64,000 nucleotides of DNA, from positions 3,096,501 through 3,160,500 of the forward strand of contig NZ_CP104965.1 in assembly GCF_025452235.1 (NCBI RefSeq), read 5' to 3'. Made by a program: the position numbers and the translations under genes. The notes beneath the pieces were generated by a model. The model saw nothing but the letters and a program-made list of their open reading frames with translations. It was not told where the DNA came from and searched no databases. Of this stretch, positions 11,453 to 18,930 are shown piece by piece; the first letter of the stretch is position 1; the number at the start of each line of letters is the position of its first letter. Source of the stretch: Devosia neptuniae (lineage in GTDB: Bacteria; Pseudomonadota; Alphaproteobacteria; Rhizobiales; Devosiaceae).

Positions 11453-12409
11453 TCAGGCACCCGTCACCATGGTTTCCACAAACAGGGCTTCGAACTTTTC
11501 GGCCTCGACAGCGATAGCCACCTCGGCGTTGGGGACAGTCGTACCAGTGCGCCGTCGGTCGGGGATGACCTGGCCGCGGGTCAGTTCGCCCACGCATTCG
11601 ACATCGACCTGCATGGCTTCGAGGGACACGACGGAGGGATCTTCCGCCACGGCTACGGCTAGAGGATCGTGCAGGGCGCAATAGGTGATGTCCGGATATT
11701 GCGCCTGGTAGGCAGCCAGATAGAAGCGCGCTGCCTGCATGACGATACCGGCCGCCGGCCCGCCGCGCTTGGCAATGTCGTCCATCATCGGAGCGGTCAG
11801 CCTAGTCTTCATGGTGACGTCCATGCCGACCATGGTGATCTTGGCGCCGGATTTGAGCACGATACGGGCGGCTTCAGGATCGTTGAAGAAATTGGCGTCT
11901 GCGACGGGGCTGGGAATGCCGGGCACGCCTGGATGCCAGATCGTGCCACCCATGAGCACGATGCCGGCGAGTTTTTCGGCAATATCGGGCGCCTTCATCA
12001 GGGCATGGGCCACATTTGTCATCGGACCAACTGGAACCAGGGTCAATTCCCCTGGACTGGCCCGGACCAGTTCGATGATGAAATCGGGGGCCCAGATATC
12101 GAGTGCCTTGGCCTTGGGGGCCGGCAGTTCGATATTACCGATGCCGTTTGCCCCATGGATGCGGCTGCCGAGCTTGGTGAAGGGGCGCGTCAGGGCGCGC
12201 GAGGCACCCGAGGCCACGGGAATTTCCGGGCATCCTGCTGCTTCCAGAATTTGCAGGCTGTTCCGCGTCGCAGCGGCGACGTCAATATTGCCATAGGTCG
12301 TGGTCAACGCCTCAAGCGTAATGCCGGGCCGATTGACGGCATAGAGGATCGCCATGGCGTCGTCGATTCCGGTGTCGACATCGAGGATGATGCGGCATTG
12401 TTTTGGCAC
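11453..12409 (-). CDS. Inosine-uridine-type nucleoside hydrolase
   Basis: A 318-residue enzyme of the IUNH family. The calcium-binding Asp cluster DVDTGIDDAMA is at residues 9-19 and TTTYGNIDVAAATRN gives the second family motif. NFFNDPEAA and the ALHDPLAVAVAEDPS segment supply further ligands. It hydrolyses the N-glycosidic bond of ribonucleosides, releasing base and ribose. No signal peptide, so cytoplasmic. It is convergent with the RpiR gene and has its own promoter region upstream (12410 onward). It fits the region as the step that opens an imported nucleoside, with the released base going to the amidohydrolase. Confidence 0.92.
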   Translation of the reverse strand: MPKQCRIILDVDTGIDDAMAILYAVNRPGITLEALTTTYGNIDVAAATRNSLQILEAAGCPEIPVASGASRALTRPFTKLGSRIHGANGIGNIELPAPKAKALDIWAPDFIIELVRASPGELTLVPVGPMTNVAHALMKAPDIAEKLAGIVLMGGTIWHPGVPGIPSPVADANFFNDPEAARIVLKSGAKITMVGMDVTMKTRLTAPMMDDIAKRGGPAAGIVMQAARFYLAAYQAQYPDITYCALHDPLAVAVAEDPSVVSLEAMQVDVECVGELTRGQVIPDRRRTGTTVPNAEVAIAVEAEKFEALFVETMVTGA

Positions 12410-12715: not shown

Positions 12716-13141
12716 ATGAGCGAATTCAATGATCAGGTGATTGCCGATTTCAACCAGAACGGGGGGCATCCCGGGGGCATGTTTGCGGGCGCTCCGGTGC
12801 TGCTGCTGCACGCTATCGGCGCCAAGTCCGGCTTGGAGCGGGTTCAGCCGCTCATGTATCTTCGCCCGCAGAACGACGGTCCCTGGTATATTTTTGCTTC
12901 CTATGGCGGCGCCCCCAAAGACCCCGCATGGTTCCGTAACCTGCTGGCGCACCCCGACGTCGAAATCTCCGTTGGCGATGGCAAGACCATCGAGAAAATC
13001 CCGGTCCGTGCGCGGGTCGTCGAGGGCAGCGAACGCGACACCATCTATGCCGAACAGGCCCGCCGCTTTCCCCAATTCGCCAAATACGAAGAAGTGACGA
13101 CCCGCGATATCATCCCGGTGATTGAACTCACCGCCCGCTGA
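12716..13141 (+). CDS. Ddn-like nitroreductase / deazaflavin (F420)-dependent oxidoreductase
   Basis: A 141-residue split beta-barrel protein of the Ddn (deazaflavin-dependent nitroreductase) family. It shows GGHPGGMFAGAPVLLLHAIGAKSGLERVQPLMYL, where the G(A)KSG loop contacts the F420 phosphate in relatives, then DGPWYIFASYGGAPKDPAWFRNLLAHPDVEI and a C-terminal RFPQFAKYEEVT.R.IPVIEL. Homologues, mainly actinobacterial, use F420H2 to reduce quinones or nitro compounds. The open frame extends upstream, but AGGAG 6 nt before the ATG at 12716 (MSEFNDQ) fixes the start. It lies just upstream of the F420 operon in the same direction, with a hairpin in between, and extends the F420 theme. Confidence 0.88.
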   Translation: MSEFNDQVIADFNQNGGHPGGMFAGAPVLLLHAIGAKSGLERVQPLMYLRPQNDGPWYIFASYGGAPKDPAWFRNLLAHPDVEISVGDGKTIEKIPVRARVVEGSERDTIYAEQARRFPQFAKYEEVTTRDIIPVIELTAR

Positions 13142-13166
13142 TCGGGCCCCGCATGACTGGGCAGCA

Positions 13167-13197
13167 AATCGGAAAGACGGTCAGCGACTTTCCGATT
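13167..13197 (+). terminator. Inverted repeat after the Ddn-like gene
   Basis: A perfect 10-bp stem (13167-13176 with 13188-13197) with an 11-nt loop follows the Ddn-like stop by 25 nt. There is no strong T-run, so it may be a weak terminator or an operator before the F420 operon. Confidence 0.45.
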
Positions 13198-13218
13198 GGC
13201 AATTGACTTGCTTGGAAT

Positions 13219-13236
13219 TTTGACCAAACGATCAAA
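13219..13236 (+). promoter_or_regulatory. Candidate operator of the F420 operon (site 1)
   Basis: The 18-mer TTTGACCAAACGATCAAA is an imperfect palindrome ending 26 nt before the fgd-like ATG. Its reverse complement differs at a single base from a site before the second LLM gene (17887-17904). The matching spacing suggests one repressor controls both transcripts. No regulator gene lies inside the island. Confidence 0.6.
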
Positions 13237-13262
13237 TAAATGGTCGAGGGAGAATTTTGAAC

Positions 13263-14276
13263 ATGCGCTTCGGGTATAAGGCGTCGGCCGAGCAGTTTGC
13301 TCCCAGTGCCCTGCTTGGCTTCGCCGTGGAGGCGGAGCAGGCCGGGTTTGACAGCGTTTTCGTCAGCGACCATTTCCAGCCCTGGAAACACACCGATGGC
13401 CATGCCCCGTTTGCCCCGGCCTGGATGGCGGCAGTGCTGGCGCGGACCGAACGCATTGTGCTGGGCACGTCGGTGCTGACGCCGACATTTCGGATGCATC
13501 CCTCGGTCGTGGCGCATGCCTTCGGGACACTGGGCTCCATGTTTCCCGGCCGGGTGATCCTGGGCGTCGGCACCGGGGAATCCCTCAATGAAGTGCCTGC
13601 GACCGGTCTGGAATGGCCCGAACTCAAGGAGCGCTCGGCGCGACTGCGCGAGGCGGTCAAGCTGATCCGCTTGCTCTGGACCGAGGACCGCGTGAGTTTT
13701 GAGGGCGAATATTACAAGACCGTCAACGCCACCATCTACGACAAGCCGGCCGAACCAGTGCCGATCTATATCGCTGCCGGTGGCCCGCTTAACGCCAAAT
13801 ATGCCGGCCGGGCTGGCGATGGTTTTATCTGCACCTCCGGCAAGGGCGCCGAGCTTTATGTCGATCAACTGCTGCCCAATGTCGAAATCGGCCGGGCCGA
13901 GTCCGAGCTGGCGGGAAAACCCTTCGAGCGCATGATCGAGGTCAAGGTGTCGTTCGATACCGATCCCGACCGGGCCTTGGATGACACGCGCCATTGGGCC
14001 GCGCTTTCCCTCTCGGCCGAGGAAAAGCACTCGGTGCGGGACCCTGCTGAAATGGAACGCCTGGCGTCAGAACTGCCGATCGAGCGGGTCGCCAAGCGCT
14101 GGATTGTGTCCAGCGATCCCGACGAGCATGTCGCTGCGATCAAGACCTATATCGATTATGGTTTCGATCATCTGGTCTTCCACGCGCCGGGCACCGACCA
14201 AAGCCGGTTTCTGGCCCTTTATGCCAAGGAAATCCTGCCTCGCTTGCGCCGGCTGACCGCAGGCGCGCCATCATGA
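13263..14276 (+). CDS. fgd: F420-dependent glucose-6-phosphate dehydrogenase homologue
   Basis: A 337-residue LLM-class TIM-barrel enzyme that closely tracks mycobacterial Fgd1: [16 protein letters not shown] start, [22 protein letters not shown] (with the His40-type catalytic residue), [48 protein letters not shown], a KHSV...EME segment and [12 protein letters not shown]. In mycobacteria Fgd oxidises glucose-6-phosphate and produces F420H2, so this would supply reduced cofactor. A TTG at 13257 is possible, but the ATG at 13263 is preferred (AGGGAG 10 nt upstream). Its stop overlaps the cofE start (ATGA). Such close Fgd-type enzymes are typical of actinobacteria and unusual in alphaproteobacteria. 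Confidence 0.9.
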
Positions 14277-15106
14277 CGCTGCCGCGCTTTTCTGCCTGGG
14301 CCGTGACCGGTATTCCCGAAGTGCTTGACGGGGACGATCTGGCCACACTGATCTGCGACGCGGTGGACAAGCAGGCCGAAGGCGACGCCGAACTCGCGCT
14401 CGCCGAGGGCGATATTCTTGTCGTCGCTAGCAAGATCGTCGCCAAGGCGGAGGGGCGCTTGGTGCCGGCGACGGACCGCGAAAAGGCTATCACCGAGGAC
14501 ACCGTTCGTGTCGTGGCGGAGCGGGTGCATGCCGGCGGCGTGACGCGGATCGTGGAGACGCGGCAGGGGTTGATCATGGCGGCGGCGGGCATTGATATGT
14601 CCAATGTGCCGGACGGCTTCGCGCTGCGCCTGCCCGAGGACCCAGACCTGTCGGCGCAACAGCTTTGCGCCATTCTGCGCGAACGGCTGGGCATTTCGCT
14701 GGGCATCATCATCACCGATACATTCGGGCGGCCCTGGCGCGTCGGCCAGACCGATGTCGCCATCGGCGCGGCCGGCCTGCAACTGACCGAAGACATGCGG
14801 GGCGGCAATGACGCCAATGGACGCCCGCTGCACGCCACTATCGCCGTGGTCGCCGATGAAATCGCCGGCGCCGCCGATCTGGTCAAAGGCAAGGCCGGCG
14901 GCCTGCCGGTCGCCGTGGTGCGCGGGCTGGGTCGGCTGGTTACCGGGCTTGATGCGCCGGGTGCTCGATCACTCGTGCGCTCGCTTGAGGAGGACATGTT
15001 TCGCTTCGGCTCGGCAGAAGCCTACCAGCTTGGTTATGACACAGCGCGGGCGGAATTTGAGGGCGGCGCCGCCGCCACGCCGCTCGCGGGTAGACAGGGA
15101 AATTGA
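14273..15106 (+). CDS. cofE: Coenzyme F420-0:L-glutamate ligase (CofE)
   Basis: A 277-residue CofE/FbiB-N-type ligase that adds glutamates to F420-0 using GTP, the last step in making the working cofactor. Landmarks are [19 protein letters not shown] at about residues 44-62, [26 protein letters not shown] at about 143-168 and the C-terminal [16 protein letters not shown]. It has no FbiB-like flavin domain, and is slightly longer than a typical single-domain CofE. The start overlaps the fgd stop by 4 nt and the transporter gene follows after 2 nt. CofE with a transporter but without CofC, CofD or FbiC in the window suggests completion of an imported precursor rather than full synthesis. Confidence 0.92.
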
Positions 15107-15108
15107 TC

Positions 15109-16059
15109 ATGCGCCTTTTCGCGCTCGCACTCGTCGCTGCCTTGCCTGCACTAGCCGTCAATCCGGCCCTCGCCGCCACCACCTATCCCCTGACGCTGCA
15201 GAATTGCGGCATGGCGGTGACCTTTGACAAAGCCCCCGCCCGCGTTGTCAGCATCAAGTCGACCGCGACCGAACTGCTGCTGTCGCTCGGCCTGGCTGAT
15301 CGCATTGTCGGCGTCGGGTTCCAGGATGGGCCCTTGCCGGACGAACTGGCTGCGGCGGGCAGCGATCTGAGCGTTCTCTCGGACAAGCTGCCGTCCCAGG
15401 AAGTCGTGCTCGAAACTGAGCCCGATTTTGTGTATGGCGGTTGGGAAAGCAATTTCGCCGCCGATGGCGCCGGCGAGCGGCCAACACTGGCCGCTCTGGG
15501 CGTTGCCAGCTATGTGGCGCCGGCCGCCTGCCGCAGCGTCAAGCCACCAAAATTGACCTTCGATGCCATCTTTGGCGAGTTCGAAGAGATGGGCGCTATT
15601 TTCGACGTCGAAGCCGCTGCAACCACGCTGGTCGACGCTCAGAAGGCCAGCCTTGCCGCTCTCAAGCCCGATCCGCGCGGCCTAACTGCCGTGTGGTATT
15701 CCTCGGGCACCAAGGCCCCCTATGTGGGCGCAGGCAATAACGCCCCGGCCATGGTGATGGAGGCGCTCGGTCTCAAGAACATTTTTGGCGATGTCGATGA
15801 CGGCTGGATTTCGGCGAGCTGGGAAGCCGTGGTCGATGCCAATCCCGATGTGATCGTGCTGGTCGATGCCGCGTGGAACTCCGCCGCACAGAAGAAGAAA
15901 CTGCTGGCGGAAAATCCGATCACCAGCCAGCTCGATGCAGTCATCAACCAGCGCTACCTCGTCATTGCCTTCCCGGCGTCCGAGGCCGGCGTGCGCAATG
16001 TGCCGGCCACGCTCGACATGGCGCGCCAATTGACGGCGCTTGATCTGCCGACCCCGTGA
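15109..16059 (+). CDS. Putative F420-0 ABC transporter, periplasmic binding protein
   Basis: A 316-residue BtuF/FepB-like (TroA-fold) binding protein. A Sec signal peptide MRLFALALVAALPALAVNPALA precedes the mature N-terminus. The mature protein shows YPLTLQNCGMAVTFDKAPARVVSIKSTATELLLSLGLADRIVGVG, then PDFVYGGWESNFA and WISASWEAVVDANPDVIVLVDA. Proteins of this type in some actinobacteria form a three-gene cassette next to cofE and fgd and were proposed to carry F420-0. A cobalamin or siderophore ligand is the alternative, but the gene context makes the F420-0 role more likely. The ATG at 15109 is 2 nt behind cofE; an in-frame TTG at 15103 is rejected. Confidence 0.82.
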   Translation: MRLFALALVAALPALAVNPALAATTYPLTLQNCGMAVTFDKAPARVVSIKSTATELLLSLGLADRIVGVGFQDGPLPDELAAAGSDLSVLSDKLPSQEVVLETEPDFVYGGWESNFAADGAGERPTLAALGVASYVAPAACRSVKPPKLTFDAIFGEFEEMGAIFDVEAAATTLVDAQKASLAALKPDPRGLTAVWYSSGTKAPYVGAGNNAPAMVMEALGLKNIFGDVDDGWISASWEAVVDANPDVIVLVDAAWNSAAQKKKLLAENPITSQLDAVINQRYLVIAFPASEAGVRNVPATLDMARQLTALDLPTP

Positions 16060-17075
16060 TGGCGCCGAAAGCATCCTACGGCCTCGCCTATACGGGCCTG
16101 TGGATTCTGTTGCTCGCCAGCGTGGCTATCGCGGTTACCCTTGGGCCTGCCAGCATCTCGGTAACCGAGGTCTGGCAGACCATTCTGCACCATCTGGGGC
16201 TGGCTGTGGACAGCCCCGTCTCGCGCCTGCGCGATGCCATTGTCTGGGAATTGCGGCTGCCGCGCGTGCTGGCGGCCCTGGGCGTCGGCGCCGGGCTAGC
16301 GCTGGCGGGCACGGTGATGCAGGTGCTGACCCGCAACCCGCTGGCCGACCCTTATCTCCTGGGCCTGTCATCCGGCGCGGCACTAGGCGCGGTGATTTTC
16401 CTGCTCGCCGGAGCGGCGCTGCTCATGCCGCTGGGCGCCTTTATCGGTAGCCTTACCGCGCTTGCGTTAGCCTTGCTGATCGCCAGATTATTGGGTGGAG
16501 CGACGCCGTCGCGCGCCATTCTGGCCGGCATCTGCATTGCCGCGCTCGCCTCGGCGGGCACTTCGCTGCTGATCTTCTGGTCGGCAACGGGGGATTCCTA
16601 CCGGGAAATCCTGAGCTGGCTGATGGGCTCGCTCAGCGGCACCTCCTGGAGCGACACGGGCCTGGTGGCCCTGGGACTGCTGCTCTGCGCGCCCGTCATC
16701 CTGTTGTCCGGGCGGGGTCTAGACGCCTTTGCCTTTGGCGAGACGGCCGCTGCCGGGCTGGGCATCGATGTCACACGGCAGCGCTGGACGCTGCTGGCGG
16801 CGACGGCGCTCCTGACCGGCGTCATGGTCGCCATCGGCGGTGCCATCGGGTTTGTCGGCCTTGTCGTGCCCCACGCGGTTCGCCTTGCCGCAGGCTCGCG
16901 CCACCGCGTGCTGCTGCCCATGTCCATGCTGGTCGGCGCCATTTTCATGCTGTGGAGCGACACTGCCGCGCGCAGCCTGTTCGATCCGCGTGAATTGCCG
17001 GTCGGCATCGTCACCGCGCTGGTGGGCGCGCCGGCATTCCTGCTCATCCTGCTACGCTACCGGCGGGTGACATGA
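16059..17075 (+). CDS. Putative F420-0 ABC transporter, permease (BtuC/FecCD type)
   Basis: A 338-residue FecCD/BtuC-family permease with about ten hydrophobic helices. Family blocks are RLPRVLAALGVGAGLALAGTVMQVLTRNPLADPYLLGLSSGAALGA at about residues 66-111, and GLVVPHAVRLAAGSRHRVLLPMSMLVGAIFML near the C-terminus. It forms the membrane channel for the binding protein encoded just upstream. The ATG overlaps the upstream stop by 1 nt (TGATG) and its own stop overlaps the ATPase start by 4 nt, so all three transporter genes are coupled. Ligand assignment rests on the cofE/fgd context. Confidence 0.85.
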   Translation: MAPKASYGLAYTGLWILLLASVAIAVTLGPASISVTEVWQTILHHLGLAVDSPVSRLRDAIVWELRLPRVLAALGVGAGLALAGTVMQVLTRNPLADPYLLGLSSGAALGAVIFLLAGAALLMPLGAFIGSLTALALALLIARLLGGATPSRAILAGICIAALASAGTSLLIFWSATGDSYREILSWLMGSLSGTSWSDTGLVALGLLLCAPVILLSGRGLDAFAFGETAAAGLGIDVTRQRWTLLAATALLTGVMVAIGGAIGFVGLVVPHAVRLAAGSRHRVLLPMSMLVGAIFMLWSDTAARSLFDPRELPVGIVTALVGAPAFLLILLRYRRVT

Positions 17076-17863
17076 GCGGGCTGATCATCAAGAACGCCAT
17101 TGTGCGGGCAGGGGAACGGACCATTTTGGCCGATGCCAGTTTTTCGGCCCCCGCTAGTGCCGTCACCGGGCTGATCGGCCCCAATGGCGCAGGCAAGTCG
17201 ACCCTGATTGCCGCCGTGATGGGCCGGCGGCGTCTGTCCGGTGGCACGATTGCCTTTGATGGCATTGACCTGCCCGGAACGCGAGCCGCCGAGCGGGCCA
17301 GGCTATGCGCCCATGTCGAACAATTCGCCACCACCACCGAGCGGCTCAGCGTGCGCGATGTGGTGGCCCTGGGCCGCGTGCCCTTTCAGTCAGACTGGCA
17401 GGCCGTGCCCTCGCCCCATGACGACGTCGTGGTGACGGACGCGATCGAGGCTCTGGGCATGTCCGCCTTTGGCGACCGGCTCTACCACCGGCTGTCAGGC
17501 GGCGAGCAACAGCGTGTCCAGATTGCCCGTGCGCTGGCGCAGGAACCGCAACTCCTGCTGCTCGACGAGCCGACCAGCCATCTCGATATCAAGGCGCAAT
17601 TGCTGGTGCTCGAGGTGTTGCGGCAGCGGGCGCTGGCGGGCTGTACTATCGTGGTCGCCATGCACGATCTCAACTTGGCCGCCCGCTATTGCGATCATCT
17701 CGTCATGCTCAATAATGGACGAACCGCAGCCGAGGGGACACCGGCCGACGTGCTGGCCCCGGACCTACTGTTGCGGGTCTATGGCGTGCAGTCGACGATC
17801 GTGAACGTGCCTGGCAGGGACTATCCGATCGTGATTTACGATTCCGCCGTCAATTCCGATTGA
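17072..17863 (+). CDS. Putative F420-0 ABC transporter, ATP-binding protein
   Basis: A 263-residue FepC/BtuD-like ATPase. Walker A is GPNGAGKST at about residues 36-44, the Q-loop lies near CAHVEQFATTTERLSVRDVVALGRVPFQ, the signature is LSGGEQQRVQIARALAQEPQ, Walker B is LLLLDEPTSHLD, and the switch His is in VVAMHDLNLAAR. It energises uptake with the FecCD-type permease (4-nt overlap). It is the last gene of the fgd-cofE-transporter operon; the next gene has its own operator 24 nt beyond this stop. Confidence 0.88.
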   Translation: MSGLIIKNAIVRAGERTILADASFSAPASAVTGLIGPNGAGKSTLIAAVMGRRRLSGGTIAFDGIDLPGTRAAERARLCAHVEQFATTTERLSVRDVVALGRVPFQSDWQAVPSPHDDVVVTDAIEALGMSAFGDRLYHRLSGGEQQRVQIARALAQEPQLLLLDEPTSHLDIKAQLLVLEVLRQRALAGCTIVVAMHDLNLAARYCDHLVMLNNGRTAAEGTPADVLAPDLLLRVYGVQSTIVNVPGRDYPIVIYDSAVNSD

Positions 17864-17886
17864 CAATAGCGCGCCGTCAGCCAAAA

Positions 17887-17904
17887 TTTGATCGTCTGGT
17901 CAAA
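17887..17904 (+). promoter_or_regulatory. Candidate operator before the second LLM gene (site 2)
   Basis: TTTGATCGTCTGGTCAAA is the reverse complement of site 1 (13219-13236) with one change. Here it extends to a perfect 8-bp inverted repeat, AAATTTGA (17884-17891) with TCAAATTT (17900-17907). It ends 24 nt before the ATG at 17929, nearly the same spacing as site 1. Confidence 0.6.
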
Positions 17905-17928
17905 TTTCAGTGCGGGGAGCGCGCAGCC

Positions 17929-18930
17929 ATGGAATTCGGGATTACTTTCAAAGGCTTTGTCGACGCCGAGCGGGCCCGATATCTGGTGCGAGCGGCCGAA
18001 TATGCCGGCTTTACCTATTGCTGGTTCTACGATTCCCACATTCTCTGGCGCGATTGCTACGCCGCCATCGCCATGTGCATGGAACATACCGAGCAGATGC
18101 GCTTCGGCCCGCTGGTCACCAATCCCGATGTGCGCGACTGGTCGGTCGCAGCCTCCATCTTCGGCTCGCTGTCCAAGCAGAGCGGCGGGCGCTTCGACCT
18201 TGCCGTCGGGCGCGGCGATAGCTCGATGCGCGTCATGGGCAAGAAGCCTGCGACCCTGGCCCGTGTCGCCGATTTCATCACCAAGACCAAGGCCATGATC
18301 CGCGGCGAGGAAGTTTCCTATGGCGAAATCCCCGCGCCGGTGAAATTTCCCTGGGCCGTCGGCCACGAGATCCCCAGCTGGATCGCCGCCTATGGCCCGC
18401 TGGCGCTCAAGACCGCCGGCGAATCCGCCGATGGCGTGGTGTTGCAGATTGCCGATCCAGGCCTCTGCAAATGGTTCACCGACCAGTGCCTCGAAGGGGG
18501 CAGGGCGGCCGGCAAGGACATGTCCAATTTCCGCTCGATGGCGGCGGCCCCCGCCTATTTCGGCGACAAGAAAAAGGCGATCGAGGCGGTCAAATGGTTC
18601 CCCGCCATGGTGGGCAACCACGTCGCTGACATCGTAGAAAAATACGGCGCCGATTCCGATCAAGTGCCCAAGAGCCTCACCAGCTATGTCGAAAAGCGCC
18701 GTGGCTACGACTATTCCAAGCACGGTCAGGCCGATAACCCGTTCCTGGATTTCATCACCGATGACATCGTGGAAAGCTTCTGCGTGCTGGGCGAACCGCA
18801 GGATCACATCGCCAAGATCCGCGACCTCGAAACAGCCGGCGTCACCCAGTTCAACATCTATCTCGACTCTGGCGACGAAGAAGAAATCATCTCCCGCTAC
18901 GGCCGCGAAGTCATCCCGGCATTCCGCTGA
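17929..18930 (+). CDS. LLM-class F420-dependent oxidoreductase
   Basis: A 333-residue bacterial luciferase-like TIM barrel beginning MEFGITFKGFVDAERARYLVRAAEYAGF. Further on it has RFGPLVTNPDVRDWSVAASIFGSLSKQSGGRFDLAVGRGDSSMR, IPSWIAAYGPLALKTAGESADGVVLQIADP and a C-terminal EPQDHIAKIRDLETAGVTQFNIYLDSGDEEE. This is the pattern of a TIGRFAM-type LLM subgroup annotated as F420-dependent. The substrate is unknown. The start is the ATG at 17929 with GGGGAG 9 nt upstream; the longer open frame begins in the ATPase gene. A candidate operator shared with the fgd operon lies just upstream. It is probably the consumer of F420H2 made by the fgd product. Confidence 0.85.
   Translation: MEFGITFKGFVDAERARYLVRAAEYAGFTYCWFYDSHILWRDCYAAIAMCMEHTEQMRFGPLVTNPDVRDWSVAASIFGSLSKQSGGRFDLAVGRGDSSMRVMGKKPATLARVADFITKTKAMIRGEEVSYGEIPAPVKFPWAVGHEIPSWIAAYGPLALKTAGESADGVVLQIADPGLCKWFTDQCLEGGRAAGKDMSNFRSMAAAPAYFGDKKKAIEAVKWFPAMVGNHVADIVEKYGADSDQVPKSLTSYVEKRRGYDYSKHGQADNPFLDFITDDIVESFCVLGEPQDHIAKIRDLETAGVTQFNIYLDSGDEEEIISRYGREVIPAFR

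What the first reader, a model, noticed from the sequence alone, without database searches (positions are those of the whole stretch)
12716..18930. Coenzyme F420-0 salvage and use island in an alphaproteobacterium
Seen directly: a Ddn-like protein, an Fgd1-like LLM enzyme, CofE, a BtuF/BtuC/BtuD-type importer and a second LLM oxidoreductase in one direction, with 1-4 nt overlaps or 2-nt gaps from fgd to the ATPase gene. Known: F420 use is mainly a trait of actinobacteria and methanogens. A three-gene transporter beside cofE (and sometimes fgd) was proposed, from a few actinobacteria that lack the earlier F420 genes, to import F420-0. Inference: this bacterium takes up F420-0, adds glutamates with CofE, reduces it with Fgd and spends it in the LLM/Ddn enzymes. 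Acquisition from actinobacteria is likely but not shown. Such a cassette in a proteobacterium would be a rarely described route to F420 use.
Basis: partly seen in the sequence, partly recalled or inferred. Interest (0 to 1): 0.87.

Follow-up and report, generated by a model that had tools for sequence, protein, structure and literature searches.

The report
F420 salvage serving pyrimidine breakdown
Most of the Devosia genomes sampled appear unable to make the rare redox cofactor F420 but carry genes that look able to import and finish it, and the evidence suggests they use it for the first step of pyrimidine (uracil/thymine) breakdown, which in the known pathway is done by an unrelated enzyme.

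Summary
In detail: Fgd, CofE, a BtuFCD-type importer and an LLM oxidoreductase lie in one direction; starts are corrected here. The genome (99.95% complete, Devosia) has no cofD or cofH match. Of 37 genus genomes, the same 31 carry cofE, the F420-0 binding protein and the LLM; cofD and cofH 0 of 37. The binding protein passes its NCBI cut-off and is 50% identical to a Jonesia protein of known structure. The Ddn-like gene is in none of 30 other cassette loci.

What is new is the purpose. The LLM (TIGR03842) and fgd follow an operator found, in exact form, only at the cassette in this genome; similar sites lie beside rutR and, in four cassette-less Devosia, upstream of preTA (dihydropyrimidine dehydrogenase). 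Near rutR, preTA is present in 4 of 5 cassette-less and 0 of 8 cassette-bearing genomes. Elsewhere TIGR03842 lies beside F420 synthesis/NpdG genes (72 of 80 loci), often beside dihydropyrimidinase/ureidopropionase (41 of 80), never beside preTA (0 of 80). Best explanation: imported F420-0, finished by CofE and reduced by Fgd, feeds an F420H2-dependent pyrimidine reductase under RutR-type control. Cargo, substrate and regulator are inferred, not shown.

The parts
13219..13236 (+). palindromic operator TTTGACCAAACGATCAAA, 26 nt before fgd
   Evidence: exact match to TTTGAYCN4GRTCAAA; a site (up to 1 mismatch) before fgd in 27 of 31 loci; only 2 exact places in the whole genome, this and 17887
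13263..14276 (+). [quoted passage not shown]
   Evidence: TIGR03554 501.7 bits, cut-off 420; nearest solved structures 5LXE and 3B4Y
14273..15106 (+). cofE, F420-0:gamma-glutamyl ligase
   Evidence: TIGR01916 224.5 bits, cut-off 180.65; present in 31 of 37 genus genomes
15109..16059 (+). periplasmic binding protein of the putative F420-0 importer
   Evidence: TIGR03868 411.8 bits, cut-off 392.4; predicted model best matches 4MLZ from Jonesia denitrificans
16059..17075 (+). permease of the importer
   Evidence: TIGR03869 434.1 bits, cut-off 437.35
17072..17863 (+). ATPase of the importer
   Evidence: TIGR03873 294.5 bits, best model but under cut-off 372.4
17887..17904 (+). second operator TTTGATCGTCTGGTCAAA, 24 nt before the LLM gene
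   Evidence: exact match; a site (up to 1 mismatch) before the LLM in 31 of 31 loci
17929..18930 (+). TIGR03842 LLM oxidoreductase; proposed F420H2-dependent pyrimidine reductase
   Evidence: 484.4 bits, cut-off 295.45; nearest structures are F420-dependent Mer; phylogenetic profile and neighbours
11453..12409 (-). nucleoside hydrolase, possible functional neighbour
   Evidence: best models UriH, RihC, RihA, all under cut-off; a 32-37% identical homologue lies in 13 of 30 other 20-kb cassette stretches, in 9 directly divergent from fgd
12716..13141 (+). Ddn-like reductase family protein; accessory, not part of the conserved cassette
   Evidence: TIGR00026 84.3 bits; absent from 30 of 30 other cassette loci

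Best explanation
The cassette supplies F420 to one enzyme of pyrimidine catabolism in a bacterium that cannot make F420. A BtuFCD-type importer takes up F420-0 (inferred), CofE adds glutamates (family knowledge), Fgd reduces F420 with glucose-6-phosphate (family knowledge), and the TIGR03842 LLM enzyme uses F420H2 to reduce uracil and thymine to the dihydropyrimidines (inferred), which dihydropyrimidinase, beta-ureidopropionase, aminotransferase and MMSDH encoded beside rutR then degrade. The LLM takes the place of the unrelated Fe-S flavoenzyme PreTA. Both transcription units carry a RutR-type operator, so pyrimidine probably induces cofactor salvage and the reductase together (inferred).
For: CofE, binding protein over cut-off and LLM occur in the same 31 of 37 genus genomes and are missing together in the same 6. 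cofD and cofH 0 of 37. Outside the genus, 6 of 6 sampled genomes with TIGR03842 have cofD. Operator: exact hits at 2 places in G000, both in the cassette; 1-3 places in each of 7 other cassette genomes; 0 in 5 cassette-less ones; reversed-pattern control 0 in all 13. Where the LLM heads the operon only one site remains, in 4 of 4 such loci. The cassette PWM's best hit is beside rutR in 9 of 13 rutR loci and upstream of preT in the other 4, where the rutR-side hit is second. preTA within about 7-8 kb of rutR: 4 of 5 cassette-less, 0 of 8 cassette-bearing. 80 loci from other taxa: F420 synthesis or NpdG genes 72, HydA/AmaB 41, both 35, PreA/PreT 0. Two Leisingera plasmids hold hydA, a Zn-dependent hydrolase and an aminotransferase next to cofGHDCE-npdG-TIGR03842 and a TetR gene (in one of them, L219, scored as RutR). 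The LLM fold is closest to Mer, F420-bound entries included.
Against: No biochemical data. G403 has neither the cassette nor preTA within the 38 kb read around rutR. preTA absence was tested only near rutR, not genome-wide. Genomes of one genus are not independent; the HydA tree needs 4 changes at best, but well supported branches force only 1 for the cassette group and 2 for the cassette-less group. Two of three importer subunits fall under their cut-offs. 37 of the 72 loci with F420 genes show no HydA/AmaB in the stretch read, many stretches being short; Roseibium and Paracoccus alcaliphilus are examples. RutR-type boxes lie before cofG in only 13 of 52 usable loci. Devosia rutR-side sites score well below cassette sites (16.5-17.4 vs 25.5-32.5 bits), so another regulator is possible.
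Confidence: 0.7

Rival explanations
1. General F420 salvage cassette: F420 is imported and spent in assorted LLM and Ddn reductases (detoxification, redox balance); the pyrimidine link is incidental.
For: Fgd, CofE and importer are real. A Ddn-like gene lies beside the window's cassette; a 759-aa LLM/FAD-oxidase-like fusion lies beside an extra operator near G385's cassette, and an operator lies before a P450 gene in G408.
Against: The TIGR03842 LLM is in 31 of 31 cassettes and under the operator; Ddn is in 0 of 30 others. Operators, the preTA split and the neighbours point to pyrimidines.
Confidence: 0.15
2. The LLM is F420-dependent and belongs to nucleobase or nucleoside catabolism but reduces something other than uracil/thymine (another nucleobase or a later intermediate).
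For: An LLM-family enzyme in Chloroflexota has been proposed as an F420-dependent reductase of the purine yanthine (PMC12507026, passages); a nucleoside hydrolase and a deaminase-like amidohydrolase lie near the window's cassette.
Against: The enzyme not seen in these clusters is that of the first pyrimidine step: hydA or amaB is present in 41 of 80 loci and PreA/PreT in none; in Devosia hydA, amaB, aminotransferase and MMSDH stand beside rutR without preTA.
Confidence: 0.12
3. The importer carries a different compound (a corrinoid, siderophore or FO) and CofE/Fgd work on F420 obtained otherwise.
For: The fold class is that of siderophore and heme binding proteins; permease and ATPase fall under their F420-0 cut-offs, and a siderophore model (EitA) is the binding protein's second-best match, at 140.9 bits.
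Against: Co-occurrence and adjacency with cofE and fgd in genomes without cofD/cofH; the binding protein is closest to the Jonesia protein. FO import alone would need CofC and CofD.
Confidence: 0.12

Closest known systems
Putative F420-0 ABC importer cassette (TIGR03868/TIGR03869/TIGR03873), proposed from a few actinobacteria such as Jonesia denitrificans (proposal recalled, not from a call)
   Same: Binding protein, permease and ATPase beside cofE and fgd in a genome without cofD/cofH; the binding protein is 50% identical to Jonesia 4MLZ.
   Different: Here in a Gram-negative alphaproteobacterial genus, joined to a conserved TIGR03842 gene and RutR-type operators; permease and ATPase under the curated cut-offs.
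Reductive pyrimidine (Pyd) pathway with PreTA/PydA
   Same: Same downstream enzymes (HydA, carbamoylase-type hydrolase, aminotransferase, MMSDH) with RutR beside them.
   Different: preTA is not seen near rutR in 8 of 8 cassette-bearing genomes examined; the first step is proposed to use F420H2 and an LLM enzyme.
F420 operons cofGHDCE-npdG-TIGR03842 of alphaproteobacteria (Leisingera, Ruegeria, Pseudovibrio and others)
   Same: TIGR03842 with an F420 reductase gene, often beside hydA/amaB and a RutR-type gene.
   Different: They carry F420 synthesis and NpdG (NADPH-dependent F420 reductase); Devosia carries importer, CofE and Fgd.
Mer, F420-dependent methylene-H4MPT reductase
   Same: Closest solved relatives of the LLM by sequence and fold.
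   Different: About 26-30% identity; different genomic context.
Proposed F420-dependent yanthine reductase of Chloroflexota (PMC12507026, passages)
   Same: LLM-family enzyme proposed in place of YgfK/UacX in reductive nucleobase breakdown.
   Different: Purine, not pyrimidine; another phylum; called putative in the passages read.

Membership tests
F420-0 importer cassette (TIGR03868/69/73) | binding protein over the TIGR03868 cut-off | tested here: met
   411.8 vs 392.4 bits; 31 of 37 genus genomes over cut-off; 1 of 385 in the class sample, this genome
F420-0 importer cassette (TIGR03868/69/73) | permease and ATPase over their cut-offs | tested here: inconclusive
   434.1 vs 437.35 and 294.5 vs 372.4 bits: under the cut-offs, yet each is the best-scoring model
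F420-0 importer cassette (TIGR03868/69/73) | linked cofE, with earlier F420 genes missing from the genome | tested here: met
   cofE overlaps fgd and abuts the importer; cofD 0 and cofH 0; cofC and cofG not searched with their own models
F420-0 importer cassette (TIGR03868/69/73) | transport of F420-0 | not testable with these tools
   needs a binding or uptake assay
F420-dependent G6P dehydrogenase (TIGR03554) | score over the equivalog cut-off | tested here: met
   501.7 vs 420 bits
TIGR03842 LLM family | score over cut-off | tested here: met
   484.4 vs 295.45 bits
F420-dependent enzymes (for TIGR03842) | occurs only where F420 supply is encoded | tested here: met
   31 of 31 genus carriers have the cassette; 6 of 6 sampled carriers outside the genus have cofD
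F420-dependent enzymes (for TIGR03842) | binds F420 and transfers hydride | not testable with these tools
   fold closest to Mer; no assay
Dihydropyrimidine dehydrogenase, PreTA/PydA type | PreA-type dihydroorotate-dehydrogenase-like domain with Fe-S domains | tested here: not met
   the LLM's only Pfam match is PF00296, luciferase-like; it can only be a functional analogue, not a member
RutR regulon | RutR orthologue in the genome | tested here: inconclusive
   one clear best hit per genome in 13 of 13, 227-243 bits, under the 368-bit cut-off; G000's protein matches only RutR models at E<=1e-20
RutR regulon | operator matches the motif next to rutR | tested here: inconclusive
   shared TTTGACCA half-site; rutR-side sites 16.5-17.4 bits, preT-upstream sites 25.0, cassette sites 25.5-32.5; the E. 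coli consensus is recalled

The most novel reading that the evidence does not exclude
TIGR03842 is a so far unrecognised F420H2-dependent uracil/thymine reductase, an unrelated replacement for dihydropyrimidine dehydrogenase in many alphaproteobacteria; Devosia run it on F420 scavenged from neighbours, with salvage switched on by pyrimidines through RutR.
Probability: 0.65. Interest if true: 0.9.

Novelty: new variant of a known kind. Interest (0 to 1): 0.86.

Why it matters
It would give F420 a concrete role in proteobacteria; the review PMC8498797 (passages) lists why Proteobacteria make F420 among unanswered questions. It would add an F420-driven variant of pyrimidine breakdown, show that F420 can be a shared good on which most of a sampled genus depends, and offer a natural test system for the F420-0 importer, which is so far a prediction as far as I know. 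It also turns a conserved uncharacterised family (TIGR03842) into a testable enzyme.

Tried and rejected
Cobalamin importer: the BtuF model gives only 21.4 bits for the binding protein. Plasmid-borne cassette: all 1291 plasmid records with a match to the binding protein are under 60% identity; the Rhodococcus hit opened sits in an unrelated cassette. A dedicated regulator beside the cassette: among ORF clusters found in 5 or more of 31 loci I recognised no TetR-like regulator by eye; the ORFs were picked mechanically and not annotated, and one response-regulator-like cluster (5 loci) was seen. Actinobacterial origin: not testable for the permease; in the two searches with the binding protein every row shown that bears an organism name is Devosia or an unclassified alphaproteobacterial, Hyphomicrobiales or Rhizobiales bin, most rows bear none, and only 120 rows are shown each time. 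The last protein search, with PreA, names Devosia pacifica (contig length equal to that of G405, cassette-less), Devosia sp. A16, D. insulae and other genera, but its list ends near 82% identity and cannot prove absence in cassette genomes. An AmaB tree failed in the script. The shuffles were mononucleotide shuffles, a weaker control than the dinucleotide ones; there, 12 of 100 shuffles also held 2 or more matches at up to 2 mismatches, so it is the exactness, position and recurrence of the sites that count.

Papers: no paper in the library holds the phrases tried for F420-0 transport or TIGR03842. Devosia with F420 gives 9 papers, 8 on mycotoxins by title, none opened. F420 with dihydropyrimidine dehydrogenase gives 3 papers, one read in passages. 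(20 of 351 listed) shows no listed paper with F420-dependent; (20 of 27 listed) shows F420 only in two works on riboflavin in mycobacteria, PMC12507026 and a rumen review (listing only, except PMC12507026). Subscription papers are mostly not held. The original F420-0 importer proposal and the E. coli RutR consensus are recalled.
Full report
1. Observation. Fgd, CofE, the binding protein and the LLM pass their curated cut-offs; the permease misses its by 3 bits and the ATPase by 78, though in both cases the F420-0 model is the best one. With ATG starts fgd to the ATPase gene is one tightly packed unit, and the LLM starts 65 nt after the ATPase stop.

2. Organism and missing synthesis. The window lies in a 4.7-Mb, 99.95% complete genome in two contigs. 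CofD has no match. In 61 genomes (37 of the genus, 24 others of the order), CofE is over cut-off in 34: 31 of the genus and three others. Those three, and only those, have CofD and CofH over cut-off, so the searches work and the genus shows neither (0 of 37 at E<=0.001). The binding protein is over cut-off in the same 31 genus genomes and in 0 of the other 24; in a class-wide sample it is over cut-off in 1 of 385, this genome. The six genus genomes without it are G400 (only 62% complete), G402, G403, G405, G409 and G419. CofC and CofG were not searched with their own models; in the three producers further radical-SAM stretches gave weaker matches to the CofH model, and G000 had none.

3. The importer. 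The binding protein's best solved relative is 4MLZ: 147 of 292 aligned residues identical (50.3%, counted). The predicted model (mean pLDDT 83) matches 4MLZ, a periplasmic binding protein from Jonesia denitrificans, with TM 0.92 by target length. Jonesia is, as I recall, one of the actinobacteria on which the F420-0 importer was proposed. I recognised no outer-membrane receptor among recurring neighbours (by eye only); how F420-0 would cross the outer membrane is open.

4. Conserved layout. In 30 of 30 other genus loci fetched (20 kb each; chosen by the binding protein) the same six genes recur. In four (L120, L124, L125, L126) the LLM stands before fgd instead of after the ATPase. The Ddn-like gene is only in the window. 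A nucleoside hydrolase (best models UriH, RihC and RihA, all under cut-off) lies beside the window's cassette; a 32-37% identical homologue lies in 13 of the 30 stretches, directly divergent from fgd in 9.

5. Operators. An 18-bp palindrome TTTGAYC-N4-GRTCAAA lies before fgd (13219-13236) and before the LLM (17887-17904), both exact (at up to 2 mismatches 0.54 matches are expected in the window, and 12 of 100 shuffles held 2 or more). Exact matches in 13 whole genomes: two places in this genome, both in the cassette; 1-3 places in each of 7 other cassette genomes; none in 5 cassette-less genomes; the reversed control pattern gives none. Over 31 loci at up to one mismatch a site lies before the LLM in 31 (printed distance 20-89) and before fgd in 27 (22-57); the four without a fgd site are the four where the LLM leads (starts there are estimated from alignments, and printed distances are one more than the gap in bases). 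Extra sites lie in L105 between a nucleoside hydrolase and a 759-aa LLM/FAD-oxidase-like fusion, and in G408 before a P450 gene.

6. The regulator. The motif resembles the E. coli RutR box (recalled; the passages of PMC10891134 seen say that RutR binds a roughly 16-bp palindrome and that uracil impairs binding). PMC7332683 cites a RutR-like P. putida regulator, PydR, that represses the dihydropyrimidine dehydrogenase gene (reference-list passage). Each of 13 genus genomes searched has one clear best RutR match (227-243 bits, under the 368-bit cut-off), with or without the cassette. A PWM built from cassette operators finds a site at the rutR side facing the aminotransferase gene in all 13 rutR loci (16.5-17.4 bits); in four of them a better site (25.0 bits) lies upstream of preT. 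Cassette sites score 25.5-32.5. RutR is the most likely regulator; another is not excluded.

7. The preTA split. rutR stands beside dihydropyrimidinase (TIGR02033, 597 bits in G000), a carbamoylase-type hydrolase, an omega-aminotransferase and MMSDH. PreA (731.5 bits in G405) and PreT lie on the other side of rutR in 4 of 5 cassette-less genomes and in 0 of 8 cassette-bearing ones, the stretches reaching about 7-8 kb beyond rutR. The exception, G403, has neither within 38 kb. By my own arithmetic the one-sided chance of this split is 5 in 715, but the genomes are related. The HydA gene tree (16 rows, two of them partial) does not group the cassette-less genomes: 4 changes on the best tree, of which well supported branches force 2 for that group and 1 for the cassette group; G419 (cassette-less, preTA) falls beside G000 at 83/95 support. 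Absence of preTA elsewhere in the cassette genomes was not tested.

8. The LLM outside the genus. TIGR03842 is over cut-off in 6 of 385 class genomes, this one included (E<=1e-60), and in 31 of 37 genus genomes plus G440 among 61. The six carriers outside the genus all have CofD over cut-off; two of them (G196, G289) carry only more diverged copies (about 52-57% identical to G440's). A scan of GTDB contigs found 263 relatives and kept the best 80. Of these 80 loci, some near-duplicates and some short, 72 have F420 synthesis or NpdG genes, 41 have HydA or AmaB, 35 have both, 0 have PreA or PreT, and 2 have none of these. So 37 of the 72 show no HydA/AmaB in the stretch. In six loci (L230, L231, L233-L236) the LLM stands directly before AmaB-HydA-ABC genes with no F420 gene in the stretch. 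RutR-like genes are in 30 of 80. RutR-type boxes at up to one mismatch: 30 in 1.43 Mb against 1, 2 and 4 in three mononucleotide shuffles; 16 lie within 250 nt before cofG, in 13 loci, 52 loci having cofG with enough upstream sequence; 5 lie near RutR, 1 near the LLM, 8 elsewhere. The box is thus enriched but not general. Two Leisingera plasmids show the whole set: hydA, Zn-dependent hydrolase, aminotransferase and transhydrogenase genes divergent from cofG-H-D-C-E-npdG-TIGR03842, followed by a TetR gene that in L219 matches RutR at 198 bits. Paracoccus alcaliphilus has the F420 operon and LLM without pyrimidine genes within 12 kb.

9. The enzyme. The LLM's closest solved relatives by sequence and fold are Mer, the F420-dependent methylene-H4MPT reductases (model pLDDT 85). 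A hydride from F420H2 to C6 of uracil is plausible for this fold; this is inference. PMC12507026 (passages) proposes a putative F420-dependent LLM-family enzyme in place of YgfK/UacX for yanthine in Chloroflexota, a close parallel. PMC7332683 (passages) describes PydA/PreAT and a ferredoxin variant; F420 does not occur in its main text.

10. Origin. CofE is 37-45% identical to CofE of alphaproteobacterial producers, Fgd 63-69% to Fgd in three Roseibium and G424, the LLM 63-73% to 37 orthologues. This suggests a mosaic: a native-type LLM (perhaps Fgd) joined to an importer and CofE of another source, possibly actinobacterial. Not tested by trees.

Verdict. The cassette is real, present in 31 of 37 genus genomes, and stands in for F420 synthesis. 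Its most likely purpose is to power an F420H2-dependent pyrimidine reductase in place of PreTA under pyrimidine control. Shown: gene content, co-occurrence, no cofD/cofH match, operators, the preTA split near rutR, neighbours. Inferred: F420-0 as cargo, uracil/thymine as substrate, RutR as regulator.

Noticed in passing
L105:15366-15383 and L105:12979-15258: A third operator beside a 759-aa fusion of an LLM domain and an FAD-oxidase-like domain, divergent from a nucleoside hydrolase; a possible further member of the regulon in G385.
   Followed up: partly
L151:6688-6705: Exact operator upstream of a cytochrome P450 gene in G408, far from the cassette.
   Followed up: partly
L108:13790-16700 (approximate end): A second, diverged ATPase/binding protein/permease set (35-42% identical) divergent next to the cassette in G404.
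   Followed up: no
L132:7710-10300 (approximate end): A second importer-like set in G420 whose binding protein scores 260.9 bits with TIGR03868, between the true family and ordinary relatives; cargo unknown.
   Followed up: no
window:6762-10420: Deaminase-like amidohydrolase (all models under cut-off) and two proteins that read like periplasmic binding proteins but match no NCBIfam model at the limit used, on the minus strand upstream of the cassette; possibly nucleobase uptake and deamination.
   Followed up: partly
L297: Contig titled Nocardioides marinus DP1N28-1 carries cof genes 67-94% identical to Leisingera's; probably mislabelled or contaminated.
   Followed up: no
L129 (G424): An F420-producing relative in the order has Fgd beside its cof genes (69% identical to the window's) but no TIGR03842.
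   Followed up: partly
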